Below, in pieces: positions 1-25,933 of a stretch of 64,000 nt of DNA. Source of the stretch: Zygnema cylindricum (lineage: Eukaryota; Streptophyta; Zygnematophyceae; Zygnematales; Zygnemataceae). The translations under genes were made by a program, and so were the position numbers. Below the pieces are notes generated by a model. The model ran no database searches. It saw nothing but the letters and a program-made list of their open reading frames with translations, and was not told the DNA's origin. The number at the start of each line of letters is the position of its first letter. Positions within the stretch are counted from its first letter, which is position 1. Location of the stretch: positions 1 to 64,000 of the forward strand of contig JBBHKE010000056.1 of the NCBI GenBank assembly GCA_037447655.1. The letters are read 5' to 3'.

Positions 1-219
1 ACAATATAATGGAGCAGACGCTTTGCACCGGACTAACTCCGCCGTTCGGCCTCCGTTTCAGGTGAACTAAATTGCGTAGGGCTCCAGAGTGAAAATATAA
101 AGATCTGATCTGGCTAGTTGTCCTCTTCTTTCTCCGTACGCTAGAGTCCGTACAAAGTGGAATGAGGCCCCGGAACTCCTGGGAGTGCAAATGTGTCAAA
201 GAAGCACACGAGCTTGACA
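1..219 (-). repeat. gypsy 3' LTR, partial (cut by window start)
   Basis: This stretch matches 16954-17172 almost base for base and ends, like that copy, at ...GAGCTTGACA, which reads TGTCAAGCTC at the LTR start on the minus strand. The remainder of the LTR lies left of position 1. Sequence beyond 219 (to about 450) is not present beside the other copy. Confidence 0.85.
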
Positions 220-412: not shown

Positions 413-440
413 ACCCCCCCAGATTTCCCCCCCCCTCTTA
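413..440 (-). other. polypurine tract candidate of the gypsy element
   Basis: On the minus strand this reads as two runs of G separated by AAATCT, a purine-rich block just 3' of the last coding domain, where second-strand priming would occur. It lies about 190 bases before the shared LTR edge at 219 rather than directly against it. Either the tract is not the real primer, or the 5' LTR copy at 17172 has lost about 200 bases of U3. Confidence 0.4.
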
Positions 441-469: not shown

Positions 470-897
470 TTAGCCGCCAAACTCGCAGTCCCCACAGAAC
501 CACGGTCTTGCGGGTCGAGAGCGGGGCTCCCAATTCAGAGGTAGGCAGCAGTCATGCCACCCCTGGTGACAGTGTTCACACACCAACAGGAGGTTGGGTA
601 CCGAGGACACATGGCAGGCAGAGGAACAGGCTGGAGGGTCTGCAAAGTAAGTGAGGTGGAAAGTGGGTTCATCCTCTAACCCTCGCAGATGGCAAGGGGC
701 CACATTGATCTGATTTTCTTTAATCTTGCGGCCATCCTTCCCCTCCAAGGTAAGAACCCCTTTGTTTGAGACCTCCACAACTTTCACAATCACCCGTCCG
801 GCCGAAATGTCCAAAGTATCCTTCTTCTGTTGCATGCGATACACAATATCCCCGGGCACAAATCGCCGTTGCCGGGGGACATAATTGTCGCTCCGTT
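470..897 (-). pseudogene. gypsy polyprotein C-terminus: integrase tail plus PHD finger
   Basis: Translation from 859 gives first an SH3-like integrase C-terminal stretch (PGDIVYRMQQKKDTLD..., about residues 1-55) that normally binds DNA. It is followed by a zinc finger of PHD type: a CSSAC pair, then CEHC, then HQGWHDCC supplying the His and Cys, then WFCGDC. The spacing C-x2-C / H-x2-C / W-x-C-x2-C and the Trp before the last pair are diagnostic of PHD fingers, which usually bind histone H3 tails. It is in the same frame as the integrase upstream, separated only by a nonsense codon near 899. Many gypsy elements carry a chromodomain at this position; here a PHD finger takes that place. The first Cys pair has spacing x3 rather than the usual x2, so folding is likely but not certain. 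Confidence 0.75.
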
Positions 898-2227: not shown

Positions 2228-2809
2228 GATCCATTTGGGGGGCTGGTGATCCGTAATAAGGGTGAAGTGTACTCCATAGAGGTAAGGCCGGAAGTGCTAG
2301 ATGGCCCACACCGCGGCGAGTAATTCCCCATGGTAACTGCTGTAATTCCCCTCGGCTCTGTTATTACTCCGGCTTACGTAGGCAACTACATACTCAGCCC
2401 TTGCGTCGTCCAATTGAGCCAAAACTGCTCCCAATCCGAACCTGCTCCAATCTGTATAAAGGAGAAAAGGCCGCTGGTGATCGGGCATCCGGAGCACAGG
2501 ATGCTGTTTGAGGGAATCCTTCTGGAATTGGAACGCTATCAGCTGTTCTTCCTTCCACTGCCACTTCTAGTCCTTTTGCAACAATTGGTTCAATGGCTGA
2601 GCGTGGCTACTGAATTCAGGAATAAACCGCCGGTAATAGTTGGCAAGGCCCAGGAAAGTACGAAGAGCAGAAATGTCCTGAGGTGGTGGAAGATCGTCTA
2701 GGGCTGCCACCTTAACCATGTGGGGACCCACTGTCCCGGGAGTCACCTCATGACCTAGATAAATAATTTTCTGCACCCCAAAGATGCCCTTCCCCGGGTG
2801 ACACTTCAA
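2228..2809 (-). pseudogene. gypsy RT thumb and RNase H
   Basis: From 2809 the translation reads KCHPGKGIFGVQKIIYLGHEVTP, the standard end of the gypsy RT palm and thumb, followed by LRTFLGLANYYRRFIPEFS. RNase H then follows: LYTDWSRFGLGAVLAQ carries the first catalytic Asp, and the tail joins the HRAG...NADGLSR motif below 2227. These enzymes copy RNA into DNA and degrade the RNA template in virus-like particles. The segment is in the same frame as the integrase. A stop lies in it near 2565 and another near 2295. Confidence 0.8.
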
Positions 2810-3822
2810 GCCCGCTGCTTGGAGTGCCCGGAGAACGATGTGTATGTGCTCCTAGTGTTCTTCGAATGTCTTGGAGAAAATGATAACATCGTCGATATAA
2901 CAGCGTGCGAAGTCAATACCCCAGAGAGCCTCGTCCATGGCCCGTTGGAATTTGCTGGTGCATTCTTGAGGCGAAATGGCATGTACACCTTTTCATATAG
3001 CCTAGATTCGCCCAAAAAGCAGTCCTCTCTCGGTGTTTCGGATCCATTGCAATCTGGTGGAATCCATTTTTCATATCCAAAGTAGAGTAAATGGTGGCCC
3101 CAACAAGAGAGTCGAATATCTCTTCCGGGGTGGGCATCGGATAACGGTCGGAGACAGTTGCCACGTTGAGCATCTGATAGTCCCCACACATCCAGAAATC
3201 TACAGTTTTTTCCGGAGGAGTCTTTCTTTGGCGGGAGCACGGTTGGTGAGGCAAAACCATGTAGTCCTGTACTCTCTTGAACCAGCCTAGCTTCCACCAA
3301 AGTCTGCACCTTTGAAGTGATAAACTCCTTCTCCTTGAAATTGAGAGGGTATTGTTTCTGCCAAACAGTAGGCGTCTCGTCGATCAGGTCAATCCGAAAA
3401 GGAGTCCCCTTATAGATCCCTACATCTATGTCAGACCAGGCGAATACCTGCCAGTTCTCTTGTAACAGCTTGGAGAGCCGGGCCTTCTGCTGTCGCTCTA
3501 GCTGTTCACCTAGAGTCCAGTCCATCTTCCCGGGTTCCACTGCCGCCAATGCTTCCGGTGGTCTCCCCAAAAGAGAGATGTCGAAGTTCAGCTCTACCAG
3601 TGGGTCTGTCCCTTGTTCGGTTGTTAAAACGCTGGTGCTGACAACTTCCTCTAAGCTGTCCTGTTCTGAGACTCCGTTCCCCCCCACTAAGGAAACTCCT
3701 GGGTCTAGTGTGTCATTGCTCCACCCCACTGAGGAAATTCCTGGGAATTTGGTGAATGTGAATTTTTCCCTCCTTGTCTCTCTCCCCCCCTCAAGCTTTA
3801 GAGTTCTTTGCATGGCCAGCAA
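2810..3822 (-). pseudogene. gypsy reverse transcriptase palm, frameshifted
   Basis: The first frame (from 3822) gives the pre-RT linker and RT fingers (KEKEFITSKVQTLVEARLV, GFASPTVLPPKKD). At about 3200 reading moves to a second frame with CGDYQMLNVATVSDRYPMPT and STLDMKNGFHQIAM, which hold the first catalytic Asp. Near 2960-2890 it moves again to give YMPFRLKNAP and CYIDDVIIFSK, the YxDD active site. At least two frameshifts therefore break this copy. The starting frame at 3822 is the same frame as the methyltransferase just upstream (4485-3862), separated by one stop, which is why I read the two as one ancestral polyprotein. Confidence 0.85.
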
Positions 3823-3861
3823 CTGTGGAGCTTGAAGGTATGTTGTACGTGATTGTGGAGA

Positions 3862-4775
3862 CTAAAGGATTGAGAATGCAAGAGAATGTTTCAGCACCCA
3901 GGTAATTGCATTTAAATCCATGTTTTGTCCGATTAAAGTGCACCTTGTTGGGGCCGATACCCCTTGCGCAGCTCTGGTTCCCGGTTGAAACCCCATTGCT
4001 TGTTCCCGTTTTGTAATATTCGGTGTTGTGCACGTGGCGATTGTACTGTCAAAGATCATTCCTGGTGCGTTCTTTCGGTAAGCGTGGCTGTTAGGAAAAG
4101 ATACTAGAGTTGGTAGGGCCCTACGTGGATACCCAGGCTTATTACAACAGAAGAAGGGTGCTTTGTCGGCTGTGATCACCGGTGTGGCCATTCGCCCCGG
4201 TCCGAGGATCTTTTGGACCGTAATGTTGGGATCCCTAACCTGTGTTTTCAACAGCTGTTAGAGGATTGGAAGGGGAACCAAGTTGGTCCAATATGCCCGA
4301 ACTCTGTGGGCTCTCGATCCGATCTGAGCTGCATCAAACACTATGGGAGTCCCTAGAACCTTGGTCACTTGGATCCAGCTGTTGACCACCTGTTTTCTCT
4401 TATCATCTATGGGGTGAACGTTCTCCAAGACGTACCCCACTGGTGTGTCCTCGCGTTCCTGTAACCCTGTTATTAATCTGGTCATTTGAAAGAAAGTTCT
4501 GCTACGGACGTCCTGGTGTCCTCGGCCTTGTACTGCTAATTAATACCCCTGGCATGGCCATCTAGTGACCACCAGGTCTACCCTTCCGAGCTTTTCCAAA
4601 TGGGAATCTGTGATATTATCCACATTCTGGGGAAGCGTGCGATGAGAGTTACGCATGGCGCACACCAGGAGTTGCTAGGGGTAAAGTTGGTGCAGCTGTT
4701 GCAGGCGGTACTCACTAACAGCACGGGCGTCCGGGTCAATCTCGACTGCTGAGTAAGTTTCTACATGGTATCCAG
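3862..4775 (-). pseudogene. retrotransposon-borne DNA (cytosine-5) methyltransferase, main part
   Basis: This region encodes a C5 cytosine methyltransferase, an enzyme that transfers a methyl group from S-adenosylmethionine to cytosine in DNA. Visible motifs in order: the end of the cofactor site (YSAVEIDPDARAVSEYR, about 4755-4705); the catalytic loop DLVVTRWPCQGY with the nucleophile Cys codon at 4552-4554; QGRGHQDVRSRTFF; motif VI GYVLENVHPIDDKR (about 4445-4405); motif VIII DAAQIGSRAHRVRAYWTNL (about 4335-4280); a target-recognition stretch (4251-4000); then KREQAMGFQPGTR and IGQNMDLNAITWVL, matching motifs IX-X. In-frame stops follow the Tyr of PCQGY, precede the catalytic loop, and fall at 4258. 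It is in frame with the RT region downstream. The residues before PCQ (TRW in place of GGP) look altered. No catalytic activity is expected from this copy. Confidence 0.88.
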
Positions 4776-4780
4776 CTTTC
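4776..4780. repeat. target-site duplication CTTTC, left copy
   Basis: CTTTC lies directly outside the left LTR of the C1 copia and is repeated at 11231-11235 outside the right LTR. The 5-bp length is normal for copia integrase. Confidence 0.93.
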
Positions 4781-5830
4781 TGTAACTCTGAGACCTCCAT
4801 AAGTCCTCAGAGTGGACAGCTTCCAAAAAGCCTCTAGGATAATCCTGACCCCTTTGTGTTTAAGCAAAAATAACTAACACCCTGGCAGACAAAAACTCTG
4901 ACAAACTTCACCCTTGTGAAGGCAAGACTCCCCTGAGTCGATAGCAAAAAGAATCTCTGAATTTGCTCCCCTGAGCAGTAAGTTATGGAGGGTCAAAGTT
5001 GACCTTTTGTACAGAAGCTCTCTGGGAGAGAGGGTCCTATCTTCTAATTTTTCTAAGTCCTATCTCTCTCACAGACTCTATCTACTGATGTACGGAACCA
5101 ATCAAAATTGAGTTCCGTACGCAAAAGTACAGCAGCCGGTGTACTTTATGTACGGACATTGTACGACATGGCCAAAATGTTGACACATGTCAAATCCGGA
5201 TTCGGTGCCATAATCTCTGGAGATTCCAGAATCCAACGGAATTTCGCCACGTGTCATCCGATGTGGCGATGGAGACAAACCGCCAAAATCTTCCTCCGCA
5301 ATCTCGGCGCTAATCTCGGCCGTCCGATTAAAGTCGACTTTAATCGTAGCCGTAATAAATACATGCGCGGTATTTGTTTCATTTACGAAACAAATGCGCG
5401 GTACTGATTTGTGTCCGTACTGTAAGTCGTATATTTATATTTTACTGGATCTATGTATCCCGTAATTCATTTCAGTTAAATGGTTTATCGCACGCATAAT
5501 CATTTAAATAAATATCAAACTGTATAGTACGTAACACTACTGCTAGACTTAACGGCTAAGGCTACCGGCTACTTTCTATCTGCCGGCCGGCAGGTACATG
5601 GATCAAATCCTCCCGCCGGCAAATACCTTTTAATTAAATAAATAAACCCTAACATAAAATTCCCGTAAACCTCAGGATAGCCAAGGTAGCCATGGCTCTA
5701 CCTTCCTCTCCAATTTCTCAGTGACTGCGACAAGTTTGAGAGTTGGAGAGAGAAGTTAGAGATAGACTGCCTCGACTTCTATATTTCTTTTCAGACCTAG
5801 AAAATACTAATAAAACCATTAGTTTCTACA
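4781..5830 (-). repeat. C1 copia 3' LTR
   Basis: On the minus strand it starts TGTAGAAACT and ends GAGTTACA. It is 1050 bp and matches 10182-11230. It holds six GTAC palindromes within 75 bp (5090-5164) and an inverted repeat around TTTCATTTACGAAA near 5380. A pyrimidine-rich CTCTC stretch and CCATGG are also shared with related LTRs elsewhere in the window. Confidence 0.95.
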
Positions 5831-5845
5831 CTCCCCTTATTTTCT
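5831..5845 (-). other. C1 polypurine tract
   Basis: The minus strand reads AAAATAAGGGGAG immediately before the TGTAG start of the 3' LTR. This is the purine primer for plus-strand cDNA synthesis. The same AAAATAAGGGGAGA appears at 20460-20476 beside a related LTR. Confidence 0.85.
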
Positions 5846-5847
5846 AG

Positions 5848-6656
5848 TCAATCTTTAATTTTAGACCACACTTCTCCCTGCAAAAAAATTAGCTTAGGGG
5901 AAGGCACAGGTTTGGTCATCATATCTGCTACCATCTCACTATCTGGTCTGTACTCTAAACTGATTATTTTGTTTTCTACTTTCTCTCTAACAAAGCTGAG
6001 TCTGATGTCCACGTGTTTGGCTTTAAAATGGTGTTTAGGATTGGCAGGAATAGCGATTGCTGCCTGATTATCACAAAATATTTTCTGCACACCACTCTTA
6101 AGGTGACCAAGCTCACCAAGCAAAGGCTTGACCCACATCAATTCTTTTACAGCAGAGCAAGAGGCCATATACTCAGCCTCCATGGTGGACTGAGCAATAA
6201 CCTTTTGCTGTTTCTACTCCAACAGCAAGCCCCATCACCCACATATAATACATATCCAGAAGTGCATCTCCTCATAGGAGCATCACCATAACTAGCATCG
6301 CTCCAAGTAGTGATGTCAGTAATCTCCCCACCCAAATGCACCCATAGATCCCTAGTTCCTATCAAGTATCTAAAAACTCTCTTAGGTGCCTCCCAATCCT
6401 TCTTAGTGGGAGCATTTAGACTTCTACTCAGCACTCCTACAGCTGCAGCTAAATCCGGCCGGGTATAATTCATAAAATAGATTACACTTCCCACTACTTG
6501 CCTGTAAGGAATAGTCTGCATGAACTTCTGTTCTTCTGGAGATAATTTCTCTTCTAAGACTATGACTCCTTCTTCCTCACTCCCCTCACTTCCCTTCTTC
6601 AACTCCATTGGAGTTGTACAACTATTAGCTTTATCCATTTGAAATTTTTCAAGCAT
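5848..6656 (-). pseudogene. C1 copia RNase H
   Basis: From 6656 the translation gives KFMQTIPYRQVVGSVIYF and TRPDLAAAVGVLSR, the usual end of copia RT, then TTWSDASYGDAPMRRCTSGY with the first catalytic Asp of RNase H. A frameshift near 6200 moves reading to MEAEYMASCSAVKELMWVK, FCDNQAAIAI and KAKHVDIRLSFVREKV, which complete RNase H. The last residues run up to the polypurine tract. The enzyme removes the RNA strand during reverse transcription. Confidence 0.88.
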
Positions 6657-6659
6657 GTT

Positions 6660-7280
6660 CTATATTGCTTCCTTTTGAGTCAATCTTATAATTTTTCTTT
6701 TTCGGTCTCTCTCCCCTTGAATTCCCAAAATATATTTTGCTCCACCCATATCCTTCATTTCAAATCTCCTCTTAAGATCAGTTTTCTGTTTATTATTTTT
6801 TTCCATTGATTTACTTAAAACAAGCAAATCATCAACATAAATTGCAATGAATATGATACCTTCCTCATCTTCAAAAACATAGATTGAGTGATCTGAGCTG
6901 ATCCGGATATATCCCAGACCGGTAAGAAACTCATCAAGCTTCTTCTTCCATTGTCGAGGCGCCTGTTTCAAACCATAAAGAGATTTAATCAGCCGGCATA
7001 CCTTACTCTCTTCTCCTTCTTCCACAAACCCTTCGGGTTGTCGCATAAAGATCTCCTCTTCCAATTCTCCATGCAAAGAGGCTGTTTTGATGTCCATCTG
7101 GTGCACTTCCATGTCTTCCGCCGCTGCTAAACTGAGAAGTATGCGGACGGAGGGAAATCTGACCACCGGGGCAAAGGTTTCCTCGTAGTCAATTCCTTCC
7201 TTTTGTGTAAATCCCTTTGCCACTAATCTGGCCTTGTAGCGCTCGATAGTGTTATCTGGGTTCAGTTTTAGTTTGAAAAC
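6660..7280 (-). pseudogene. C1 copia reverse transcriptase
   Basis: The translation gives RYKARLVAKGFTQKEGIDYEETFAPVV, VHQMDIKTASLHGELEEEIF, CRLIKSLYGLKQAPRQW and the active site AIYVDDLLVL. This is a canonical copia RT. An in-frame TAG replaces the Trp of the WVFKLK motif near 7280, and a second stop lies between KEAI and NMLEKF at about 6658. The residue after MDIKTA is Ser where most families have Phe. Confidence 0.9.
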
Positions 7281-8432
7281 CTAGTTACAACCGATTGGTT
7301 TTCGGTTAGGTGGACAATCCACCAGCTCCCAAGTATCGGCTGCCATGATTGAAGCCATCTCCCCATTGATGGCTGTCTTCCACCGGTTTCTTTCTGGACA
7401 AGTCATCGCCTCTCCATAAGTTTGAGGTTCATCTTGATGAGATAGTTTAGTTACCTTGTTATTAACCTGTTTTTCTTGCAGTCTTTTGCTACTTCTCCTC
7501 CCCCCCTCAAAATCTGAGGCCGGAATAGATGGTTCTCGTGGATTCTTTCGAACAAACTCGGCTTCTCCCCTATCCCTTGATTCTGAATCAATTTCCACCA
7601 CGTCTTCCGCTTCGAGTAGAGTTGTCACTAGAGTTTCCACAGCCGAGTCCTTTTCGGTCTGATTTGTTCCTGCAAGAATGTCATCGTCTCTAAAACCTGG
7701 ATAGTTAGGAAGCTCAAAGTCATCGGAATTTTCTGACTCAAATCTGATTTTTACTGACTTTGTATATTTGAAGGGATCCACAGACTTTCCTTCATCCATA
7801 ACTACTAGATGCTTTACTAAGATTATATCTTCCCTTTTTAGATCATAAACTCTATATCCTTTAACATCTTTATCATATCCTAATAAGTATCCTGGTTTTC
7901 CTTTAGGATCTAGCTTCCAATTGGACCGATCAGTATCTAGACTGAACACTTGACTGTCAAAAACCTTTAAGTGAGATATGTCTGGTTTCCGGCCTGTCCA
8001 TCTCTCATAAGGTGTTTGATCTTTTATAGCTGAAGTAAGAACTCTATTCTTGAGGTAATTAGCACAGTTCATTGCTTCTGCCCAAAACCTTTTCCCTATC
8101 TTTTTATCTGACAACATACTTCTAGCACTATCACTTAGTGTTCTATTTAACCTTTCAGCTACCCCATTCTGTTCAGGATTTTCTAGAACTGTTTTTTGGT
8201 GTTGAACCCCATCTTCCCTCAGAAAATCCTCAAACTGGTTAGAAGTATACACTCCACCATTGTCACTCCTTACTCTCTTGATTGGAGTTTCATGGAGTTT
8301 TTCCCTCCATGCTTTATATTGTCTAAAACAATCTTCAGCTTCGGACTTGTTTCTCAAAAAATATACCCGGGAATACCGAGACCAATCATCAGTTATAGTC
8401 ATCATAAATCTCTTCCCCCCCGGTGAGGGCAC
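7281..8432 (-). pseudogene. C1 copia integrase core and linker
   Basis: This is the DDE integrase: ITDDWSRYSRVYF holds the region after the first Asp, RVRSDNGG the second Asp, and NPEQNGVAERLNRT the catalytic Glu. The first Asp (HTDIWGP) lies just upstream across a frame break near 8440. HLKVFDSQVF and KGYRVYDL are the usual C-terminal GKGY-type features. The tail (about 7750-7300) is acidic, Ser/Glu rich and leads to the RT start (EAMTCPERNRWKTAI). The zinc-binding HHCC part sits at 8440-8660 and is broken (MMWHKRLGHVNLDKL is visible). Confidence 0.9.
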
Positions 8433-8683
8433 TTTAGCCGGTCCCCAAATATCTGTGTGTACTAGATCTAGAATTTTTTCTCCCTTATAGGTGGCTGACT
8501 TAGGAAAGGGTAATCTGTGTGCTTTACCTTGAGCACATCCACTACAATCACTTATATCATACTCTCACTGAACTGAATCCCTTCCACCACTCCCATCTTT
8601 TTCATCTCTCTTAACTTATCTAGATTCACATGCCCAAGCCTCTTATGCCACATCATAATATCATGAACACCAGCATAATAAAG

Positions 8684-9274
8684 TTATTTCGTTTCATCAC
8701 TTAAGATGAGCCTAAACATCCCATGGATACCTTTCTCAACAATGAAATAGACATCCTCCTCAAAACTAGCAGTAAAGACTCCTTCCCTAGTGCTAGTGCA
8801 AAAACCCTTATCATCTAATACGGATGTAGAGATAAGGTTTTTGTTCAGCTCCGGAATAAACAATACATCGAAGAATGTTAATATGGATGTCTTTCCTTCT
8901 ACTAACACTTTCAGATCTATCGATCCTACAAGAGTAGTGGTGACTATCCTCCCATCCCCGTACTCTATCTCTACGGTAGGAATCTTTCTTATCTTAGTGA
9001 ACAGGTGCCTATCCTTACACATGTGCATGGAGGCACCTGAATCTATAATCCAGCCTGCTTCACCTTTCAATCCAGTGTAAGCACATTTCTGCCTTCGTGG
9101 AATTTCAACCTCATTTTTTTCCTCCAACTCCTCATCCAAAAAGAGTTGATCGTCTTCTTCCTCTGATTCTGCCTTAAGTACCTGTGTGACAAGGGCCTTT
9201 TTCTTTCCTCTCGGGGTACCACCGGTCTGCCCCTCTTTTAACCAAAGCTCGGTTAGCTTACTGCACTCAGCCAT
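8684..9274 (-). pseudogene. C1 copia protease region
   Basis: From 9274 the translation begins with the last zinc-knuckle residues (MAEC), then an acidic linker, then WIIDSGASMHMC with the DSG catalytic motif of retroviral-type aspartic protease. DVLFIPELNKNLIS is the flap-side motif usual in copia. The frame stops at SDETK just before the HHCC integrase finger. It cleaves the polyprotein in the particle. Confidence 0.88.
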
Positions 9275-10201
9275 ATAGTGCCCGGTTTCTTACAAAAATG
9301 ACATAAACCTTTGGGAGCCCTTGGTTCGAACTCATCAGCCTGTTTTTTTCTGCTCCCTACCCCCATAGTTTTCGACTGGTTTCCGGGAATCTTTGTTCCT
9401 CTAATAGGTCGTTGTTGCCAAGGCTTGGCCACTCTTTCCTCCCCTTCGGATCTCAATCGTATTCTCTCGAACGAGAATCATCCCTACCACTGAGTTCCAT
9501 ATCCACCTTGAGTCCGACAAGTCCTATACACGGTTGACTATGTTCTCGAACACATTAGGTAACTTCATAAGTAAACAATTAACCTTTTCATAATCACTAA
9601 AAACTTTTCCCTAACTCTCTAACTCCATGAAGAGTGTAGCAAGTTCATTGCAAAAATCCAACATATTTCCCCCTTTGTATACATACTCTTTAACTTTCTG
9701 ATCAGCCAAATGTTGTTGCTGAATCGTACCACTTCGGTACATCTCTATGAGAGCCATCCAAAGATCGGATGCCCTTTCTACCTGCAAATGGGGACATGCA
9801 AGGCCTTGAGTGAGATGGCGTAGGATGAAGTGCTTTGCCGCCATATTGTTGAAGTCCCAGGTTTCAGTATCATTGTACTCGTTCCTCGGAATAGGTGACA
9901 TGAATGCTGAACCAGTTGCTATTGGTGTGGTCGCTTCCTTCTCCTTTCCTTTGTCCACCACCTCTCCTTCATTTGTTTCCTCCGTTGAAGGTGAATCCTC
10001 TTTCCTGGTGAATCTGCTTTCTTTAAACCCTGGAGGAATTCCAAGACTTGATGGACGCCCGAATCGTCCACTCACTATCCCCCAAAACCTTTTTTCGCAT
10101 AGAGCTCCTATCATCATACTTTCCCAGTATATGAAGCCAGTTCCATTAAAGATTGGTACCCTAGAGGGTGGGCCCATAACCTGTAACTCTGAGACCTCCA
10201 T
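9253..10201 (-). pseudogene. C1 copia gag
   Basis: Gag forms the virus-like particle. It opens with Met at 10201, inside the LTR (20 nt from the LTR edge), and reads straight through the primer-binding site into VMGPPSRVPIFNGTGFIYWESMM, which matches copia capsid N-termini (FNGTGF..W). The capsid part continues to about 9611, where a stop appears. Further down, in shifted frames, a basic region precedes the CCHC zinc knuckle CHFCKKPG-HYMAEC, which needs one base inserted at about 9285 to be in frame. At least two breaks therefore inactivate it. Confidence 0.85.
10169..10181 (-). other. C1 primer-binding site, half-tRNA type
   Basis: Directly after the 5' LTR the minus strand reads GGTTATGGGCCCA. 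It is complementary to the anticodon arm of eukaryotic initiator tRNA-Met (GGGCCCAUAACC), the site used by Drosophila copia and yeast Ty5, and not to the tRNA 3' end used by most plant copia elements (TGGTATCAGAGC). Confidence 0.8.
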
Positions 10202-11230
10202 AAGTCCTCAGAGTGGACAGCTTCCAAAAAGCCTCTAGGATAATCCTGACCCCTTTATGTTTAAGCAAAAATAACTACCACCCTGGCAGACAAAAACTGT
10301 GACAAACTTCACTCCTGTGAAGGCAAGACTCCCCTGAGTCGATAGCAAAAAGAATCTCTGAATTTGCTCCACTGAGCAGTAAGTTATGGAGGGTCAAAGT
10401 TGACCTTTTGTACAGAAGCTCTCTGGGAGAGAGGGTCCTATCTTCTAATTTTTCTAAGTCCTATCTCTCTCACAGACTCTATCTACTGATGTACGGAAAC
10501 AATCAGATTGAGTTCCGTACGCAAAAGTACAGCTGCCGGTGTACTTTATGTACGGACATTGTACGACATGGCCAAAATGTCGACACATGTCAAATCCGGA
10601 TTCGGTGCCATAATCTCCGGAGATTCCACAATCTAACGGAATTTCGCCACGTGTCATCCGATGTGGCGATGGAGACAAACCACCGAAATCTTCCTCTGCG
10701 ATCTCGGCGCTAATCTCGGCCGTCCGATTAAAGTCGGCTTTAATCGTAGCCGTAATAAATACATGCGCGGTATTTGTTTCATTTACGAAACAAATGCGCG
10801 GTACTGATTTGTGTCCGTACTGTAAGTCGTACATTTATATTTTACTGGATCTATGTATCCCGTAATTCATTTCAGTTAAATGGTTTATCGCACGCATAAT
10901 CATTTAAATAAATATCAAACTATATAGTACGTAACACTACTGCTAGACTTAACGGCTAAGGCTACCGGCTACTTCCTATCTGCCGGCCGGCAGGTACATG
11001 GATCAAATCCTCCCGCCGGCAAATACCTTTTAATTAAATAAATAAACCCTAACATAAAATTCCCGTAAACCTCAGGATAGCCAAGGTAGCCATGGCTCTA
11101 GCTTCCTCTCCAATTTCTCAGTGACTGCGACAAGTTTGAGAGTTGGAGAGAGAAGTTAGAGATAGACTGCCTCGACTTCTATATTTCTTTTCAGACCTAG
11201 AAAATACTAATAAAACCATTAGTTTCTACA
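10182..11230 (-). repeat. C1 copia 5' LTR
   Basis: It pairs with 4781-5830 and has the same TG...CA ends. The right flank CTTTC (11231-11235) repeats the left one. The gag ATG lies inside its last 20 bases. Confidence 0.95.
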
Positions 11231-11235
11231 CTTTC
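11231..11235. repeat. target-site duplication CTTTC, right copy
   Basis: This is the second copy of the 5-bp target duplication of C1. Removing C1 and one copy rejoins the methyltransferase reading frame. Confidence 0.93.
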
Positions 11236-11290
11236 AGGACGGCTTCAAGATCGAAACTAATGCTTGAAAATACGGATAATCCTAAGTCCT
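11236..11290 (-). pseudogene. methyltransferase motif I (N-terminal part, cut by C1)
   Basis: Read on the minus strand and continued at 4775, this gives GLSVFSSISFDLEAVLKAGY followed by the YSAVEIDPD stretch. That is the layout of C5 methyltransferase motif I, where FxGxG binds S-adenosylmethionine. The two glycines are missing here (FSSIS), so cofactor binding would be lost. The C1 insertion lies between DLEAVL and KAGY. Confidence 0.7.
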
Positions 11291-11747: not shown

Positions 11748-12236
11748 CTAGGAAGGGAAGCCGAATCTGCACGTGCTGGCATGCGTCGTCAGAAAATTCG
11801 ATTTCCATGGCTTTAATGATCTATATACTGGTTGGCTGCCACTGCTAACTGTGCTCAAGCATATGTCACTTTGACTGATTTTTGGCTGGAGTTCATCGAG
11901 CATTTGTTGTAGTGCTGATGTAGTTATTAAGTTTGGAAGAGCTCCGGTATCCACCACTGCATCCTGGTACCCGCCGTATCCATTAAGTTTAAAATTTCTC
12001 GTCCTGTTGAGAATAAGAGCCACCGAAAGGGTCTTATAATCCCTATCTGCCATATAGGTTTTTGGTTCTGCCGACATGAAGACTGTCTTGGGCGGTTCTG
12101 CCAACGCGACCCTTTTCCTCCTAGTGTGAATTTCTTCCCCTAATGCCTGAAAGAGGGTTTCTTCGAGCAGATTGTGGGAGGAAGCCAGCTTTTTGACATG
12201 CGTTAAGGCGTAGGGCATCAAGTGTCGTACTAACAT
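11748..12236 (-). pseudogene. gypsy aspartic protease
   Basis: The motif QDAVVDTGALPNLIT contains the DTG catalytic triad of retropepsins, preceded by a typical beta-strand region (TLSVALILNRTRNFKLNGYGGY). The following stretch would be the flap and C-terminal half, but the downstream signature is weak. The protease processes Gag-Pol in the particle. A frame change separates it from the linker below 11745. Confidence 0.75.
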
Positions 12237-12306
12237 AACTGCCGGTTTGGAAAAAAGAGGGAGAGCTTTGGGAGATCAAATGGGTGAGGCCTTGTCTTCC
12301 GATTTC

Positions 12307-12880: not shown

Positions 12881-13291
12881 TCAGTCGAAGAGCGGCCAGT
12901 TCTGTTGCCAAAGCGGCCAACTGAGTGCTCTGTTGCTGAATGATGTGTTCGGTGTCAGTCTCCTGGGGCCCGGGTCATTTGGAGATCGTCCCCAAGGATA
13001 CAAAAGTTGTAGTGGCAGAGGATTAACGGCAGTTTCCCCTTCGCCTGTAAACAATGCATACTGCATCATCTCCTTCGGAACCCCATTTTTCCAAAAGCAT
13101 TGTCCTTCTTTGTGTCCTATGAACCCACAAACTTCACATTTTGACCCCTCAGTAGTATACTTCCCCCTTAGCTCAATAGGGATTGTGGGATTCCAATTGT
13201 GTATAGCCTGGCTGGCACTCCAATTGTCCAGAGATACCTGTCCAGTTGGCCCGAAGGAATTTTGAACAGCGACACAATACTTGGTGGCCAT
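12881..13291 (-). pseudogene. gypsy gag nucleocapsid (CCHC zinc knuckle)
   Basis: The motif CEVCGFIGHKEGQC matches C-x2-C-x4-H-x4-C, the retroviral nucleocapsid knuckle that binds genomic RNA. It follows a stretch that overlaps in another frame with the capsid-like part (13881-13168), so a frameshift near 13290 joins the two. Confidence 0.8.
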
Positions 13292-13881
13292 AGCCGATGT
13301 ATCGATGGTGGACAGTTTGGTCTTCTGGCAGAGGCTGGCGAGGCGGTTGAACAGCGTTTGTGGAGTTTCATTCTACAAATAGCGGAAGTTTGTGAAGTCG
13401 TTGATGGCAGTTTCGTTCCTTTCTGTGTAAAAAAGTCTCCGAGCGTCCAGAGAGTGGTACAGGGATTAGGATTGGCAACCATCCTGGTGGCTGCTTCGGC
13501 TGCCTGTACCGCCTGCAGGTGGTTAACATAGGCCCTGCCATGGGCGTGAAGTTTCATATCCATGGTGAAATTGGGGGTGAGAGGAGCTGCGGCTGCGGCA
13601 GCCTGGTCGACTGCTGCCTGAAGAGCCTCGGCGTCCTGATCCGGATCCAATATTTTGATACTGGGGGCCATCAACAAAGGTTGACGCTCCTTATAGTCGG
13701 CCAAAGCTCCTCCGGCTAGATAATTTACCATCATCGGAAACAGGGTGGTTTCAAAATCTGCTGGAATGGCCCCTCCCCTGTATTTGTTAATTTCGGGCTG
13801 CGTGAAGGATTTCCACAGCAGTTCAAAATCAGAGAAAGCAATTCTCGAGTTGTCTTCGGTGAAAATCCGGACGTCTCCCAT
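13168..13881 (-). pseudogene. gypsy gag capsid-like region
   Basis: From 13881 the translation gives a largely helical protein (FSDFELLWKSFTQPEINKY, an alanine-rich segment near residues 85-100, and HAHGRAYVNHLQAVQAAEAA). Its position before the zinc knuckle and its helical composition fit capsid. I recognise no specific family motif. Reading frame is lost after about residue 170. Confidence 0.6.
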
Positions 13882-14375
13882 TCTCCTTTCTTCTTCGGTA
13901 GGGTTGGTGAACCTTGGGGACGCCTTTCCGGTCGGGCTGACAAACTGAGTCGGTGAGATTGCCCCAGGATTTGCTACCTCGAGATCCGAACCGGTCCCTC
14001 CTCCAATAGGAAGGGCGGTTGTACCAGCAGTGCCCCCCCCCTGCGCTGAGGAAGGTTTTGATCTTGAAAAAGTTGGATAGTCGTCTGCTCCTCTATATCC
14101 AAGAGAAGCGCGTGCTTGACGGAGAACTTCCTCTTCCGATGGTATGTGAAGACGAGGTCTAGTTCCCCGAGAATGGATGACGGCGGAGAAGGTGAAGACT
14201 GGGAGCTTGGAGGAGAAGGTGACTGTTTCCTGAAAGGAGTCTGCTTCCTAGGTCGCCTCTGGGAATCTTCGGGAGGAGGAGTTCCGGAAATAGAGGATGG
14301 TGACCGTCTGTGAGGTGGCGAGTAGACGTCTGGTTTGGGGGATAGGCGAAGTGGACCTGGTGACCCACGGACTGC

Positions 14376-15886
14376 TCACGCGAAGAAGATTGATTGCGAG
14401 GGAGAAGAGGCGTGAGGTGGTGATGGAGGAGGAGTGGTAAGCCCGAGGGAAATGTGTAGTCTCTGGTCGGGTTGTAGCTGCACCACGACCTCCACGCTAG
14501 AAGATCCCTTGACCGAGACAAATGTAGGGAGATCTGTATCCGTGGCTACTGGATTACTCGGCAAATCTGCACCCAACCCCTTTTTGTTAGGCCCTGTTGT
14601 TTCCTCCCCTTCCCGCTGAAGAGGAGATTCTGGTCTCGGTTCTGGTGAAGTCCGGGGATCTCGCGTGACAGGAGGAGTTGCCTGATCCAGAGGTTGTACT
14701 TCCGTCGTGGGACCGGTTCTACGAGGAGGTGCTACCTGTCCACTAAGGATTCCCCCAGATCTCCGTCTAGCCTCCCGTATCAGGATCAGCTCCTGTTCCA
14801 ATGCTCTCTTCCTTTCCTCTTCAAGGGCATCCCAATCTATTGCGACGGGTCCGGCCCCCGCCGTAGCCTTATCCTGCGATCGTAGAATCTCAACCAATTT
14901 CTAGGTGCTGCTCACCACACGCGAGAGATCCGCAAGCCCCAAACCGGGTACCTCGGGGTCCGTAGGCCTTGAACGCCATAGTCCTTCGGATGGTCGGACA
15001 ACTGGTGCGGAAGGAGACATGGAACTTGGGGGAATTGAGGCAGAAGGAAAGAATGGCTCTTCTTTGACCAGGAGAGCAAATAGACCTTTGCTGTCCCGAT
15101 GGTTTAACCGGAAATCTCTCTTAGGCTCAGGTAACTTCCGCTTGCTACTCCCTTCCCTGGTCCGGCCCCGAGAAGTGGCTCTGCCCCTAAAAGGTCTACT
15201 AGTAGTAGTTTCCTGAGATATGGAGGGCTGTTGTGGTGAATAGACGGCATCTCCGGTTGCTCTCGGACTGAGACGGGAGAGCCACTTTCGGACAAGCTAC
15301 TCAGGATCTCCATTACTCCTCCCACCGGGCATATGATCCGAGCTCGGTCGCTTCTGGCAACCCGCTGCACCAGCTCCTTCTTTCCTTTCAATTCATGGAT
15401 ATTGTGAAGGGCTAGAATCTCCTTACGACCGGGTCGGTTAGGATCCGACAAAAGTTCAGGATCCATGTATGTCTCCACTATCGGAGCCTTGGATCGGGTA
15501 TAACGTACCACCTCGGGAGGGTGGCTTGGGACCGCTTCCTTATGAGCCAAACCATTCCTACGGGATTTGGGAGCAAAAGTCTGTCTTTCTACCTTCTCCG
15601 TAGCCCGAGCCCTGGCGGCCTCGGACAATGTCGGAAAGTTTTCAGGGGAAAAGACTGGAGGAGGTGGAGGAGAGGATCTCCCCACTGGGTGCGTAGGAGG
15701 AGTGTCGACCGCAACCCCCCGGGGCATCTCTCCCTTAAGAAACCGCTCTATGTGTACAGGTGAGCCAAAAGGGGGTGCTCCGTCGAGCACATGTGACTCT
15801 TCCTCCTGGGCCGCCGCTTCCTGTCTCTCCTGCTCATCCGATCTGACACCCGGAAGATCCTTATCCTGGACTTTTCCTCCCCCCAT
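14376..15886 (-). pseudogene. gypsy gag N-terminal proline-rich region
   Basis: Two open stretches (15886-15104 and 14897-14376) encode Pro/Ser-rich, charged sequence: VFSPENFPTLSEAARARA in the first and DALEEERKRALEQELI, a probable coiled coil, in the second. The first Met at 15886 follows a leader without long open frames and is the likely polyprotein start. Later parts (14376-13885) hold more Pro/Ser-rich sequence with frame breaks. No known domain. Confidence 0.55.
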
Positions 15887-16953
15887 AGCTGACTGGAGAA
15901 GAAGATCTAAATCCCCTTATAAAAGTACTCCGATCTGAGCACCTATCCTCTTTAACCTAAAGAGACAGGTTGCTTTTCAGTACTGTGCTACTCCGCTGGA
16001 AGCCCACTAAATGCCACACTCCCAGCTACTCTCCAAAGAATAGGAAGGAAATGAGAGTCGTCCGATCCTTTCCGCAAAAACTCCGGACAAACCCAAAGAT
16101 GACCACAAGAGTGTGCAAATAACTCCCACGCAGAAATATAGAAATAACAAATATCGGCTTTTCAGATTAAACAATATCACCTTGCCCCAGAGAATGGAAT
16201 TAGAGATAGAAATGAATGATAATGGTGAAGCGAATTCAAATACCCCGGAGTGCAACGATGACCAAACTCAGCACAAGAAAACCTATCCCAATGGCCCCGA
16301 AGTCAGGCATGAGTCTCCCTCAACCCTCCCGGTTCCACCGCAAGGATCCGACAAGACTCTTCTTAGTTTCAAACAGCGAAAGTCCAAACCGCCCAAAGAG
16401 AAGATAGTGACCACTACCCACGCGTGCTACGATCTCCACAAAAGATAATCCAAAACAAAGATGGCAATAGAGTCAACGACACAATGCAACCGTTCTCCAA
16501 CAGAAAGATTGATTTTAATTCTCTGGGGATTTTCTCAGGAGACAGTACTAAAAAAGCAACCTGTCTCCTTCGGCCCCAAATGCCTTATACAACCAGAGTT
16601 TGTCCTACTGCAAGTTCCAAAGTCAAAGCAATGTGACAAGCCAATCATCGGCCAGCAATTGTTATCGTACTGACATAAGACAAAACAGACTGTACTACAC
16701 TCAGGACTAAAAGTTAGACGACCGGTCTCGGCTAGATTAGCGGCCGAGGGTCCTCCTATAATACACAAAATGGAAACAAAGTGTTGACTTGACGTGAAAC
16801 CGTCGAACTTTGACCCAAAGTCATTAATGCTTGGCCCGGCGGTTGGGCCTAAACTAACATCCTACTGACAGCTAACAGTAGGATCTACAGGATAGTTCCA
16901 AAGGTTACGTGTCGTTCTCTAATGTATCCCTCTACTAGAGCTACATAGAACAG
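15887..16953 (-). other. gypsy leader and internal side of the 5' LTR
   Basis: No coding signal. This region runs from the gag start to the part of the 5' LTR shared with 1-219. The LTR/leader boundary cannot be placed because the matching part of the 3' LTR is outside the window. I found no obvious primer-binding site. Confidence 0.5.
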
Positions 16954-17172
16954 ACAATATAATGGAGCAGACGCTTTGCACCAGACTAACTCCGCCGTTC
17001 GGCCTCCGTTTCAGGTGAACTAAATTGCGTAGGGCTCCAGAGTGAAAATATAAAGATCTGATCCGGCTAGTTGTCCTCTTCCTTCTCCGTGCGCTAGAGT
17101 CCGTACAAAGTGGAATGAGGCCCCGGAACTCCTGGGAGTGCAAATGTGCCGAAGACGCACACGAGCTTGACA
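16954..17172 (-). repeat. gypsy 5' LTR (part shared with 1-219)
   Basis: This is the counterpart of 1-219 and ends at GAGCTTGACA. The next bases (AATCTACC...) belong to a copia LTR fragment, so this is the outer edge of the gypsy insertion. Confidence 0.85.
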
Positions 17173-18419: not shown

Positions 18420-20160
18420 ATTTTTATCCAATGACGCCATGAGAAAACACCTTTATTTATTATAGTTATTGCAGTTTACTAACCTTTGTTTACTAGTTCG
18501 TTTACTATTCAACAAATGTCATTATCACAAACCAAAATGATGTATTGGGACCAAAAAATCAATTTTGTTTGTGTTGTGTACCGGGAAAAAACTTAGCGTG
18601 ATAAATGTGATTGCGATGGTTATCGGTTATCGAACGGTGAGGGGTCCCGATGTATCGCTCCGAGACCAGTAAATTTACAATTGACGATGAGTGGGAAAAA
18701 ATATAGTACGCTATACAATAGGACTTTATAATTTGTATTTTCATTGCGTATAAAGTGGCATGCCACGTATGACAATGTATTCCTTACTCTGTATAACGGA
18801 AGAACGGAAGCTCAAGACAATGGAATAAACACTACATCTATTGCGGAAGCTGAGGAGAACGGAATAAACCGTACAACTATATGGTATGTACAGTACAATT
18901 GTTGCCGATAGTTATCAAACCGGTGTTATTGCGATAAAAAACCTACATTTTCGGTTTTTTTTTTGCGATACTGGTCTCGATAAAAAACTGATATTATCGG
19001 TTTTTTAATCGCGATAACACCGGTACCGATATATCTTACCAATGTATCGATTATCGGTAGGCCAAAATTGGGGCATATTGGTTATTGGCAAATGGCTACC
19101 GATACACAACACTACACCGCGTTTCGCTATTAGGGTTAATCACGCTAATTCGGCGCCCCTAAATTTTTACCCAAATTCTTAAATAGAATGATTAAAAAAA
19201 CCGTAAAAAACAAATTAGAGCTACTGACTTTCTTGAAAATCCCCAAATTCCCAATTAGCGTTAATCACACTAATTGTTCTTTAACACTAAATATTTGTTA
19301 TCGCTAATAGCGATTCGCGGTGTACAGTACTATACAGTACAGTACTGTAGTTTTTTTTAGTCCCTTCACTATGTAAAAAAAACGACATGATGCCACGTTG
19401 CCAAACTTATTAAAAGTATCTGTACGTCCCACCATTGTCGGCGATGCCACACGCGTTGTCAGAGTGGGTATCTGGGGCCGTCGGTACGGACCCATAGTTT
19501 TTGAGGGGGGTGGAGTACAATTGCAATGCATACATTTTTTTGTGAGGTCTCCAATTATCAGATGGCTTGCCACCTTAGATATTTGCCTTTGAAATGCTGG
19601 CAAAAGTTTTAGGAAGTTTTGTACGAATACGTACTCCATGTCGCAGGAGCTTGCGCGTTACCAAAGCTATGTAGCTAGGCGATTATCAATCCCCAAAAAA
19701 ATATTTTTGTTGTTACTTATAATTATACGATATAGTCAGATATCGATAATACTGTCTCCTCGGATCTTCGGTCGGTTCTTTCGATGTTTTTCTTGATAGA
19801 GTACGCCAGTACGGTATTTTCAGTGGCCGATATTATGACACTTTTTTAAACCCTAACTTTAAACTTTTCGAAAACCGTGCGTCTTTTTACAAAATAGGAA
19901 CGTTCAGTGCGATTTAATGTGCACGTACTGTTTCGCACATGACTTTTATACCTATGGTTTGCTTGAGCTCCTTGTCTCGCAAGTGCGACAGAATGGGACC
20001 TAACCCTAATAATGGAAGATGGTTAGTGCTTATCTCTGGAGCTAGCCATTGCTGTAGGTGTTTAAGTCCGAGACAAAGAATCCAAGCTGCTGATTGAAAA
20101 GCCAATGAAGTCGATTTCTTCGATCTGTCATGCGGTTGGTGTAGGAAATCTTCAGTATTG
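18420..20160. repeat. 1.7-kb dispersed repeat, copy A
   Basis: It matches 27412-29160 over its length, for example CCATGAGAAAACACCTTT, TTGTTGCCGATAGTTATC, ACGACATGATGCCACGTTGC and AATGGAAGATGGTTAGTG. Copy A has a 208-bp MITE (19115-19322) that copy B lacks. Copy B has a 277-bp insertion that A lacks. Copy A ends at about 20160, where copia RNase H sequence begins abruptly. No intact reading frame. Confidence 0.8.
19115..19322. mobile_element. MITE, TIR CACCGCG..., TA target duplication
   Basis: It starts CACCGCGTTTCGCTATTAGG and ends CTAATAGCGATTCGCGGTG, inverted copies of each other, flanked by TA on both sides. It is 208 bp and does not code. It is absent from the equivalent place in copy B of the host repeat (about 28060). 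It shares TIRs with elements at 38159, 48260, 55786 and 56976. Confidence 0.85.
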
Positions 20161-20162
20161 CT

Positions 20163-20476
20163 AATGTGGGTGAAGTCATTGTTGCAAAAACTGGGATATA
20201 TGAAGGAGGGAGTGCATGAATTCTTTTGCGATAGTCAAGCTGCAATCGCAATTGGCGCCAATCCAAAACACCATTTCAAAGCAAAACATATGGACATAAG
20301 ATTAAGCTTCGTAAGAGAAAAAGTTGAAAATTAAATTTTAAATCTTGTGTATAGACCTGATGAAGAAATGGTGGCTGACATGATGACCAAACCTGTGCCC
20401 TCTCCTAAATGTTAATATTGTCGGGAAAAATGCGGGTTGAAAGAAAAGTTAAAATTAGACTAGAAAATAAGGGGAG
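20163..20476 (+). pseudogene. copia RNase H fragment
   Basis: The translation gives MWVKSLLQKLGYMKEGVHEF, FCDSQAAIAIGANPKHHF and KAKHMDIRLSFVREKVEN, then MVADMMTKPVPSP, closely like C1 RNase H. One stop interrupts it. It ends at an AAAATAAGGGGAGA polypurine tract and then an LTR. Only the 3' end of the element is left. Confidence 0.88.
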
Positions 20477-20477
20477 A

Positions 20478-21490
20478 GTTGAAGTTAGTAGATTTCTATA
20501 GTATTTTCCAGGTTTAAATATGTTACTATAAATCAAAAAGAAAAGAACGGGCAGCCTGCTTCCACCTCCTCTCTTTAGCCCCCATACTTGTTGTAGTCCT
20601 GAAGGATAGAGAGGGTGGTTGATCCATGGCTGCCTTGGTTCAACAGGCAGTTATTTTTAGTAGGTTACTAAAAATAGACCGGACGGACCCGAGATTTGAT
20701 CCTGGTACCTTCGGTTCGTCAAGTTGGCCGATAGCGGTCAGCTTTATCCTATAAGACTAGGACCAGTGCTACATGCTAAAGTATGAGATACATATATATT
20801 TATTTAGGGAAGAACAAATCCATTTAACTAAAACTCTATACGGCACACATAGATACAGTTTTATGAAAGTACGAAGTACGATTCTATTTCAAAACGGATA
20901 CCACGCACTTTCGACAACGCGCGCAAATATTTATAACGGTTAAGATTGCGTCTCTATGCAAATCCAACGGCGCAAATCATCGCCCAAATTCCGGAGTGGT
21001 CACTTTGGCGTTTTGTGACGTGGCATGACCTGGAGTCACGTGGAGAGATGACATTCGGTCATGGGAATTCCGAGGAATGTACGGACGAGTGAAAAGTAGA
21101 CACGCGTCCACTTAATAGCCTTGTCGTACATAGGACGTACAAAAGGTACACTGGCAGTAGTACTTTTTGGTACGGTACAGTAATCTGATTGGTCTATACT
21201 TTAGTAGATAGAAGTTATTAGAGGGAATTAGGACTTAGAAAATTTTGGTAGGCAGTCAACTCTCCCTTTGAGAATTTGTACAAATTGGCACTTTTACTGC
21301 CTCATAACTTATGGGCTGGTTGGCGGTTTTCAATGATTATTTTTCCTACGGACTCAGGGGAGTCCAGGCTACACAAGGTTGCAGTCAAACTGTCATTTTG
21401 CCTTTTTGGACAACAATGGTTGTGGCTTAAAGTGGGTTAATTAAATACTATCTAGAGGCTTCTTGTATTTTCTGTGATCCAATGGAAGAC
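20478..21490 (+). repeat. C1-related copia LTR
   Basis: It follows directly after the polypurine tract and starts GTTGAAGTTAGTAGATTTC. It contains the CCATGGCTGCCTTGG block, GTAC-rich sequence at 21130-21180 and AGAGGGAATTAGGACTTAG, in the order seen in C1 on the opposite strand. The 3' edge is estimated from the block GATCCAATGGAAGACACAGAATTGCAC, so it is approximate. Confidence 0.65.
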
Positions 21491-21684
21491 ACAGAATTGC
21501 ACATGGCCGCACATCAAAATTTACACGAATTTTACAAAAAGTATGAAAAAGACGAATACTACGTAATTTTTGAAAAAGTTAAAATCCGTACGAATCGAAA
21601 ATCAACGCGTTGCCGTGCGTCTGCAGTACGTGCATGATAAATTGTACAGGTACATGCCCGTGTAACGGGCGTTGATTTACTAGT

Positions 21685-21779
21685 GGAACAAAGCAGCAGC
21701 GACGCAGAAGGGACAAAGCAGCTGCAACGCAGATGGAACAAAGCAAGGGCGACACAGACGAGACAAAGCAGCTGCGATT
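21685..21779. repeat. 25-bp minisatellite
   Basis: Units beginning GGAACAAAGCAGCAGCGACG, GGGACAAAGCAGCTGCAACG, GGAACAAAGCAAGGGCGACA and GAGACAAAGCAGCTGCG follow each other every 25 bases. Related GACAAAGC motifs continue to about 21870. Confidence 0.75.
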
Positions 21780-21870
21780 ATTTTGGATATGATTTGGTAC
21801 GGGACGACGCAGCTGCGACAAAGCTGTAGTGACGTTGAATATGATTCGAAACGGGACAACGCAGCGGCGA

Positions 21871-22560: not shown

Positions 22561-22779
22561 AATGAGACACTCTTTTGCAAGTAGACTTTGGCTAGCGAGT
22601 AAGCAATTGTGTAAACTCTTTCCCAGCTTAATACAAACCCAAAGCTCTTCATTGTGTATGTTGTATACGCTGTGTAAGGGTGCTCTTGCTACGAGTGAAT
22701 CTCTGGGATTATTTCGCTGTGCATTGCTAGTAATACACATTGAGTTTGCTACGTTCACTCTTTTTACTGCAGCCAAAAG

Positions 22780-23312: not shown

Positions 23313-23316
23313 GAGT

Positions 23317-23443: not shown

Positions 23444-23505
<62 letters not shown>

Positions 23506-25930: not shown

Positions 25931-25933
25931 TAG

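What the first reader, a model, noticed from the sequence alone, without database searches (positions are those of the whole stretch)
3862..11290. Ty3/gypsy retrotransposon encodes its own cytosine-5 DNA methyltransferase between protease and RT
The sequence shows PCQ, ENV, the SRAHRVRAYWTNL motif VIII and a motif IX/X tail in the right order, on the same strand and in the same frame as the RT start (4485, 4251 and 3822 differ by multiples of three). The domain is therefore part of the polyprotein, not a captured neighbour. Retrotransposons with methyltransferases have been reported in dinoflagellates and charophytes (de Mendoza and colleagues, 2018). The arrangement here, placed between protease and RT and combined with a PHD finger, may be a distinct lineage. 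An element that methylates DNA could mark its own cDNA, hide from or exploit host silencing, or damp its competitors.
Basis: partly seen in the sequence, partly recalled or inferred. Interest (0 to 1): 0.92.

Follow-up and report, generated by a model that had tools for sequence, protein, structure and literature searches.

The report
Gypsy retrotransposon carrying its own methyltransferase
A jumping gene of a plant-like genome carries, as a fixed part of its own protein, an enzyme that looks able to put methyl marks on DNA (the marks hosts use to silence jumping genes), together with a chromatin-reading finger, and related elements occur in several green algae.

Summary
On the minus strand lies a decayed Ty3/gypsy element with a DNMT3-type methyltransferase between protease and RT; a nested Copia element (4781-11230, GAAAG duplication) splits it in motif I. 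The host assembly (353 Mb, unnamed) gives 150 scored matches (the cap); in two copies DNMT-RT-RNase H-integrase-PHD is one open frame of 1,520-1,525 aa. Of the 100 best RT matches, 58 have a DNMT 1.1-1.6 kb upstream; four of the other 42 were read and all carry DNMT sequence. Additions: (1) an in-frame UAG (49 of 50 copies with the site; 6 of 56 gave none), context UAG-CAA-UUC, separates Gag-Pro from DNMT-Pol, so Pol is probably made by readthrough; (2) a C-terminal PHD finger; (3) split repeats (A-genes-B-A-B) with TGTCAAGC...GCTYGACA ends; (4) relatives, including Closterium, Chromochloris, Haematococcus and Marchantia records, with two domain orders. De Mendoza et al. 2018 described KnitGypsy-Dnmt3 (Gypsy, DNMT3, split repeats), so the kind is known; PHD, stop and breadth were in none of the paper listings or passages I saw. 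Most likely role: methylating its own new cDNA (inferred, untested).

The parts
15984..17172 (-). Repeat A1 (5' end of the gypsy element), begins TGTCAAGC; no B repeat upstream of it
   Evidence: about 1.19 kb, its pieces 88-94% identical to A repeats of C1374, C544 and C2216
12881..15916 (-). Gag-type coding region, decayed (frames 15104-15916, 14376-14900, 13974-14375, 13168-14247, 12881-13372); no Pfam match, assigned by position and likeness to the open frames of other copies
   Evidence: 0 families for 13168-14247; 0 families for the two gag-side frames of C1374
11748..12275 (-). Aspartic protease region (DAVVDTGALPNLIT)
   Evidence: Asp_protease_2, E 0.2 in the window; E 2.1e-4 in C1374
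11491..11493 (-). Conserved in-frame TAG between Gag-Pro and DNMT-Pol, context ATC TAG CAA TTC
   Evidence: (49 TAG and 1 TAA among 50 distinct copies with the site; 6 of 56 copies examined gave no site)
11231..11290 (-). First part of the DNMT (motif I), 5' of the Copia insertion
   Evidence: by comparison with open copies
4781..11230 (-). Nested Ty1/Copia element (LTRs about 10181-11230 and 4781-5832, 97.8% alike; GAAAG at 11231-11235 and 4776-4780); later insertion, not part of the gypsy element
   Evidence: copia pol frames
3862..4775 (-). Rest of the DNMT (motif II, IV PCQ, VI ENV, VIII RAHRVRAYW, IX/X), with stop codons
2297..3861 (-). Reverse transcriptase and start of RNase H, with frame breaks
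   Evidence: RVT_1 and RT_RNaseH in C1374
899..2296 (-). End of RNase H, integrase H2C2 and DDE core (rve)
   Evidence: rve E 7.2e-12, H2C2 E 7.6e-12, RT_RNaseH E 2.7e-11, all within 1223-2296; for 899-1222
485..619 (-). PHD finger at the C-terminus of integrase
   Evidence: PF00628, E 5.9e-4, below the curated cut-off; Cys/His pattern kept in copies of both subfamilies with exceptions in decayed ones; stronger PF00628 hits in relatives P0005 and P0012
222..426 (-). Repeat B1, directly after a purine run (427-439); its end is followed by 2 nt (220-221) and A2
1..219 (-). Repeat A2, cut off by the end of the contig; 96.8% identical to A1

Best explanation
SHOWN BY SEQUENCE: a decayed copy of a multicopy Ty3/gypsy family with split repeats (A-genes-B-A-B). 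ORF1 is Gag-protease; after a conserved in-frame UAG comes ORF2: DNMT3-type methyltransferase, RT, RNase H, DDE integrase, PHD finger. The DNMT keeps its catalytic residues and evolves under purifying selection. INFERRED: a small share of ribosomes reads through UAG-CAA-UUC, so DNMT-Pol is made in small amount as a Gag-Pro-DNMT-Pol fusion and packaged with the RNA. The DNMT then methylates the new element DNA during or after reverse transcription. Marked cDNA would look like host DNA and enter the host's maintenance system, while the PHD finger tethers integrase to a histone tail at the insertion site. The fixed B-GC-A junction suggests that integration starts from a circular cDNA opened at GACA^GC^TGTC.
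Against: No activity was tested. In the 2018 paper the KnitGypsy-Dnmt3 domain gave no methylation in yeast, which its authors called inconclusive (PMC5890265, section 10). Of 118 further relatives found by RT-integrase, 76 have no DNMT in the pol ORF, so it may be dispensable or carried elsewhere; ordinary gypsy elements need none (recalled). The readthrough hexamer is CAAUUC, not the full CARYYA consensus, and no strong downstream RNA structure was found. The Gag-Pro frame runs straight to the UAG in 6 of the 10 copies; in 4 it is broken earlier. The DNMT is less constrained than RT. The one copy read at both ends shows no target-site duplication, which a DDE integrase should leave. Subfamily 1 versus 2 dN/dS could be computed for only 6 of 64 pairs because dS is saturated.
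Confidence: 0.6

Rival explanations
1. The DNMT works on the host genome or on other copies (self-limitation, or damping competitors) rather than on the element's own cDNA.
For: The PHD finger implies contact with chromatin; the host holds at least 150 related places, so a brake on copy number would be plausible. The 2018 authors mention slowed retrotransposition as a possibility (PMC5890265, section 11).
Against: The DNMT lies inside the Pol polyprotein and behind a stop that is probably leaky, which favours action inside the particle; no methylation data here.
Confidence: 0.2
2. The domain is kept as a DNA-binding, base-flipping or polyprotein-spacing module and its methylation is not what selection sees.
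For: Motif IV is WPCQ in this family but WECQ in the third family and others (15 of the 29 retroelement rows that show the motif), a change beside the catalytic Cys; the K. nitens domain gave no methylation in yeast (PMC5890265, section 10).
Against: Motif IV Cys, ENV Glu and a motif VIII Arg are invariant in the 12 aligned sequences and the model of one relative has the whole DNMT3 fold.
Confidence: 0.13
3. The UAG is not read through: ORF2 is translated separately, by reinitiation or from a spliced or second RNA.
For: An ATG is codon 19 of ORF2 in C1374; no strong stimulatory RNA structure; the predicted proteins P0001 and P0111 begin shortly before the DNMT.
Against: In 6 of 10 copies the Gag-Pro frame runs straight to the UAG in the frame of ORF2, and the codons after it are unusually fixed; the third family in the same genome has no stop between protease and DNMT, as expected if a fusion is the normal product.
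Confidence: 0.25
4. Chance neighbour: a host or bacterial DNMT beside a gypsy element, or an assembly artefact.
For: None beyond the decayed state of the window copy.
Against: Same arrangement in dozens of separate places and in proteins of other sources.
Confidence: 0.01

Closest known systems
KnitGypsy-Dnmt3 of Klebsormidium nitens (de Mendoza et al. 2018, PMC5890265; sections 9-11 read)
   Same: Gypsy domain set, unrearranged DNMT3-type enzyme in Pol, multicopy, conserved key residues, purifying selection, repeats in the order A-coding-B-A-B
   Different: Other host, as far as can be told (the five K. nitens proteins among the 120 listed are 38-46% identical to the query). The paper's main text does not mention PHD or readthrough. 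Its domain order is in a figure that is not held.
SymbioDIRS-Dnmt3 of Symbiodinium (same paper, passages of section 6)
   Same: DNMT3 in Pol and split repeats
   Different: DIRS element with tyrosine recombinase; here a DDE integrase (rve) and gypsy-type RT
RNase H-DNMT-integrase-PHD gypsy elements of Chromochloris (P0008) and metagenomes (P0004-P0006, P0012, and 33 of the 118 proteins added)
   Same: DNMT of the same group, gypsy pol, C-terminal PHD in most
   Different: DNMT sits before integrase, not between protease and RT
Chromoviruses (chromodomain gypsy elements; definition recalled)
   Same: Gypsy pol with a chromatin-reader domain after integrase
Leaky UAG of tobacco mosaic virus type (UAG CARYYA; PMC2754532, passages)
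   Same: UAG followed by CAA UU
   Different: Sixth base is C, not A; readthrough not measured here

Membership tests
KnitGypsy-Dnmt3 kind | Gypsy-type RT, RNase H and DDE integrase | tested here: met
KnitGypsy-Dnmt3 kind | DNMT3-type, unrearranged catalytic domain in the Pol ORF | tested here: met
KnitGypsy-Dnmt3 kind | Repeats A-coding-B-A-B | tested here: met
   (all four repeats seen in C1374; B-A-B in C2216; A, B and the start of A in the window)
KnitGypsy-Dnmt3 kind | Key residues conserved, purifying selection on the DNMT | tested here: met
KnitGypsy-Dnmt3 kind | DNMT clusters with the K. nitens retrotransposon DNMTs in a tree | not tested
   No protein named K. nitens with a DNMT was among the listed hits; the five K. 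nitens proteins listed (P0091, P0101, P0109, P0129, P0140) show no DNMT
DNMT3 | Best sequence and fold match to DNMT3 over other C5 methyltransferases | tested here: met
   one search has only two outgroups
DRM | Circularly permuted motif order | tested here: not met
   Motifs I, IV, VI, VIII, IX/X run in the unpermuted order
DIRS | Split repeats | tested here: met
DIRS | Tyrosine recombinase instead of DDE integrase | tested here: not met
   rve and H2C2 found, no phage-integrase family among the Pfam hits
Chromovirus | Chromodomain after integrase | tested here: not met
   No PF00385 hit; PHD instead
Programmed UAG readthrough (TMV type) | UAG followed by CARYYA | tested here: not met
   CAAUUC in 51 of 53 rows, UAAUUC in 2 rows of one copy: five of six positions fit
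Programmed UAG readthrough (TMV type) | Measured extension protein | not testable with these tools
   needs a reporter assay or proteomics

The most novel reading that the evidence does not exclude
One ancient capture of a DNMT3 gene founded a large lineage of PHD-bearing gypsy elements spread over both branches of green plants (chlorophyte and streptophyte algae, a liverwort relic). The methyltransferase later changed place inside pol (before RT in one branch, before integrase in the other), and the lineage shares a life cycle of leaky-stop expression, self-methylation of circular cDNA opened at a fixed B-GC-A junction, and PHD-guided insertion. Methyltransferases would then be tied to split-repeat (circular-intermediate) retroelements in general, as in DIRS.
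Probability: 0.25. Interest if true: 0.8.

Novelty: new variant of a known kind. Interest (0 to 1): 0.6.

Why it matters
Cytosine methylation is the mark by which plants silence transposons. An element that brings its own de novo methyltransferase with a chromatin reader, keeps the enzyme under purifying selection, and has relatives in several green groups probably gains from marking DNA. The 2018 report treated the charophyte capture as an event of the K. nitens lineage; the wider spread, the two domain orders, the conserved UAG and the fixed junction give testable handles on when the DNMT is made, which DNA it marks and how split-repeat elements with a DDE integrase insert.

Tried and rejected
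Chance neighbour or artefact: rejected. DNMT swapped in by recombination between subfamilies: RT protein is about 96% and DNMT about 75% identical between subfamilies, but DNA identity shows no sharp break along the element, so ordinary difference in constraint suffices. A 5,743-aa open frame at C961 is largely a stretch of N. Variable dinucleotide at the B|A junction as captured flank: set aside in favour of ancestral GC plus transitions (59 GC, 13 GT, 11 AC, 2 AT of 95). Strong RNA structure behind the UAG: not seen (z between -1.84 and 0.58 in 8 copies). Relatives in viral contigs: the 49 loci are 27-44% matches; I take them for phage or bacterial cytosine methylases (inference, not checked) and did not use them. 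Naming the host: no RuBisCO large subunit in the assembly; the K. nitens, Closterium, Calypogeia and Marchantia records listed are at most 50% identical. Zygnema cf. cylindricum (359.8 Mb, 3,587 scaffolds; PMC11096116, passages) has a similar size, but the scaffold number differs and nothing links them. Single origin of the DNMT: the 28 retroelement DNMTs join apart from DNMT3A and one bacterial enzyme (97/96), but with two long-branch outgroups and no plant DNMT3 this is not shown. Searches that found no paper with all terms or nothing on point.
Full report
1. What is in the window. All features are on the minus strand. Frames 4258-4539, 3862-4257 and 2806-3861 abut in one frame and carry ENV, RAHRVRAYWTNL, the IX/X tail and the start of RT; PCQ lies just upstream in the same frame. 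The 225-aa piece has no Pfam hit, but its first 29 of 35 PDB rows are DNMT3A, 3B or 3C (best E 2.4e-4). It interrupts the DNMT within motif I. Upstream come a protease region (11748-12275) and gag-type frames; downstream RNase H, integrase (rve E 7.2e-12) and a weak PHD hit (E 5.9e-4). The copy is decayed and cannot make the enzyme.

2. The family. The host assembly is held (353 Mb, 2,689 contigs, unnamed). The 93-aa ENV-VIII piece scored 150 places, the cap, of 1,080 candidates; PF00145 scored 123 places of 782 candidates. In C1374 and C544 one open frame of 1,520 and 1,525 aa runs from the stop described below through DNMT, RT, RNase H and integrase to the end of the PHD finger; for C1374 Pfam finds DNA_methylase, RVT_1, RNase H, H2C2 and rve in this order, with PHD in the C-terminal piece. 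I gave the first 100 of 150 RT rows: 58 of 100 have a same-strand DNMT match 1.08-1.63 kb upstream. Of the 42 without one, four were fetched: all four carry DNMT sequence, one only its C-terminal part and one beside an assembly gap. The other 38 were not read. There are at least two subfamilies (DNMT about 75% identical, RT about 96%) and a third, distant family (C1344; DNMT 42% identical) with one uninterrupted gag-protease-DNMT-RT-RNase H frame, 1,799 aa in the 5.4 kb read and 2,395 aa by the genome search.

4. A conserved stop. In 6 of the 10 copies (C1374, C1662, C161, C2216, C928, C886) the Gag-Pro frame runs straight to a TAG just before QFPISKRWE, in the frame of ORF2; in the other four it is broken earlier. 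Of 56 distinct copies examined, 50 gave the site: 49 TAG, 1 TAA; six gave none (L011, L020, L060, L063, L068, L073) (three of its 53 rows are second readings of the same copies). The following codons are CAA TTC in all but one copy. Between subfamilies, identical codons make up 0.88 of the first nine positions against 0.42 further on (median of 56 non-independent pairs; a single pair gives P 0.016). TMV-type readthrough uses UAG CARYYA (PMC2754532, passages); the site fits five of six positions. No strong RNA structure was found. I infer readthrough; reinitiation is the rival.

5. Ends. In C1374 A1, genes, B1, A2 and B2 are all present (with other DNA between B1 and a second B stretch before A2); C2216 shows B1-A2-B2 and its A1 was not found in the stretches read; the window shows A1, B1 and the start of A2; no B lies upstream of A1 in the window, C1374 or C544. 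A begins TGTCAAGC and B ends GCTCGACA or GCTTGACA, an inverted pair. The pattern GCTYGACA-N(0-8)-TGTCAAGC gives 224 strand matches in the genome (palindromic forms counted on both strands) against 1 for the reversed control. Of 95 distinct places in the 100 listed rows, 93 have exactly two spacer bases: GC 59, GT 13, AC 11, AT 2, others 8. Of 55 RT rows (of the same 100) on the contigs covered by that list, 27 have such a junction 2.5-3.2 kb downstream on the same strand. C1374, the only copy read at both ends, shows no target-site duplication. A two-LTR circle cut at GACA^GC^TGTC would give the arrangement A-genes-B-GC-A-B; this is inference.

6. Relatives. With the DNMT part of one copy, 15 proteins were found, and 14 with the DNMT alone: Closterium NIES-54, Chromochloris, Haematococcus lacustris, a degenerate Marchantia copy, the rest from metagenomes or unnamed. 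With the RT-integrase part, 1,056 proteins scored and 120 were listed. Of the 118 new ones, 9 have DNMT before RT, 33 have it after RT (before integrase), 76 have none in the ORF; some ORFs begin inside or just after the DNMT (P0035, P0036), so absence is not shown. In the RT-RNase H tree of 108 rows (those with complete stretches; the rest were dropped) the second order falls in one branch (38 rows, 34 with DNMT, SH-aLRT 99), while the first order is scattered among rows without DNMT (8 changes). The 28 DNMTs of both orders and of unknown order join apart from DNMT3A and one bacterial enzyme (97/96), with too few outgroups to prove one capture.

7. Known and new. De Mendoza et al. 2018 (PMC5890265; sections 9, 10 and 11 read, plus passages) describe KnitGypsy-Dnmt3: DNMT3 in Pol of a Gypsy element, DIRS-like A-coding-B-A-B repeats, purifying selection, no activity detected in yeast (inconclusive). 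A 2025 survey (PMC12344493, passages) repeats streptophytes and dinoflagellates. The main text of the 2018 paper has no occurrence of PHD, readthrough or Chlamydomonas. Searches returned no paper whose listing reports a PHD finger, a readthrough stop or chlorophyte members for such elements; the library lacks most subscription journals. The finding is a new variant of a known kind.

8. Mechanism. Shown: gene order, conserved stop, selection on the DNMT, split repeats, PHD. Inferred: readthrough, packaging, cDNA methylation, histone tethering, circle-based insertion. The likeliest purpose is marking the element's own new DNA; action on the host genome or a non-catalytic role remain open.

Noticed in passing
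window 40525-48095: Copia-type sequences in inverted and direct copies: 40525-42445 against 46177-44277 (96%, inverted) with LTR-like pieces at 45753-46176, 47672-48095 and 42446-42713; a nested or rearranged pair of Copia elements (RVT_2, E 1.6e-54).
   Followed up: partly
window 18422-29159: Further repeats: 18422-19100 and 19531-20169 recur at 27408-28057 and 28523-29159 (82-87%), and pieces at 20206-20513 and 22787-23355 resemble the nested Copia element, inverted.
   Followed up: no
window 52197-53654: Host-like frame with MORN repeats (Pfam E 8.7e-19), overlapping a simple-repeat region.
   Followed up: partly
window 58917-59738: DDE_Tnp_4 / plant transposon transposase fragment (E 2.5e-7), Harbinger-like by recall.
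   Followed up: partly
window 40129-40267, 53125-53608, 58695-58813: Related low-complexity repeats shared between three distant places.
   Followed up: no
L077 (C1344:88000-93400) and relatives P0004, P0006, P0007: Motif IV reads WECQ instead of WPCQ in 15 of the 29 retroelement DNMT rows that show it; P0010 and P0026 read WPCE.
   Followed up: no
P0092, P0110: Two metagenome relatives carry a chromodomain (PF00385) and a PHD finger with the DNMT.
   Followed up: no
window 427-439: Purine run (AAGAGGGGGGGGG) directly before repeat B1, in the place of a polypurine tract; no primer-binding site recognised after A1.
   Followed up: no
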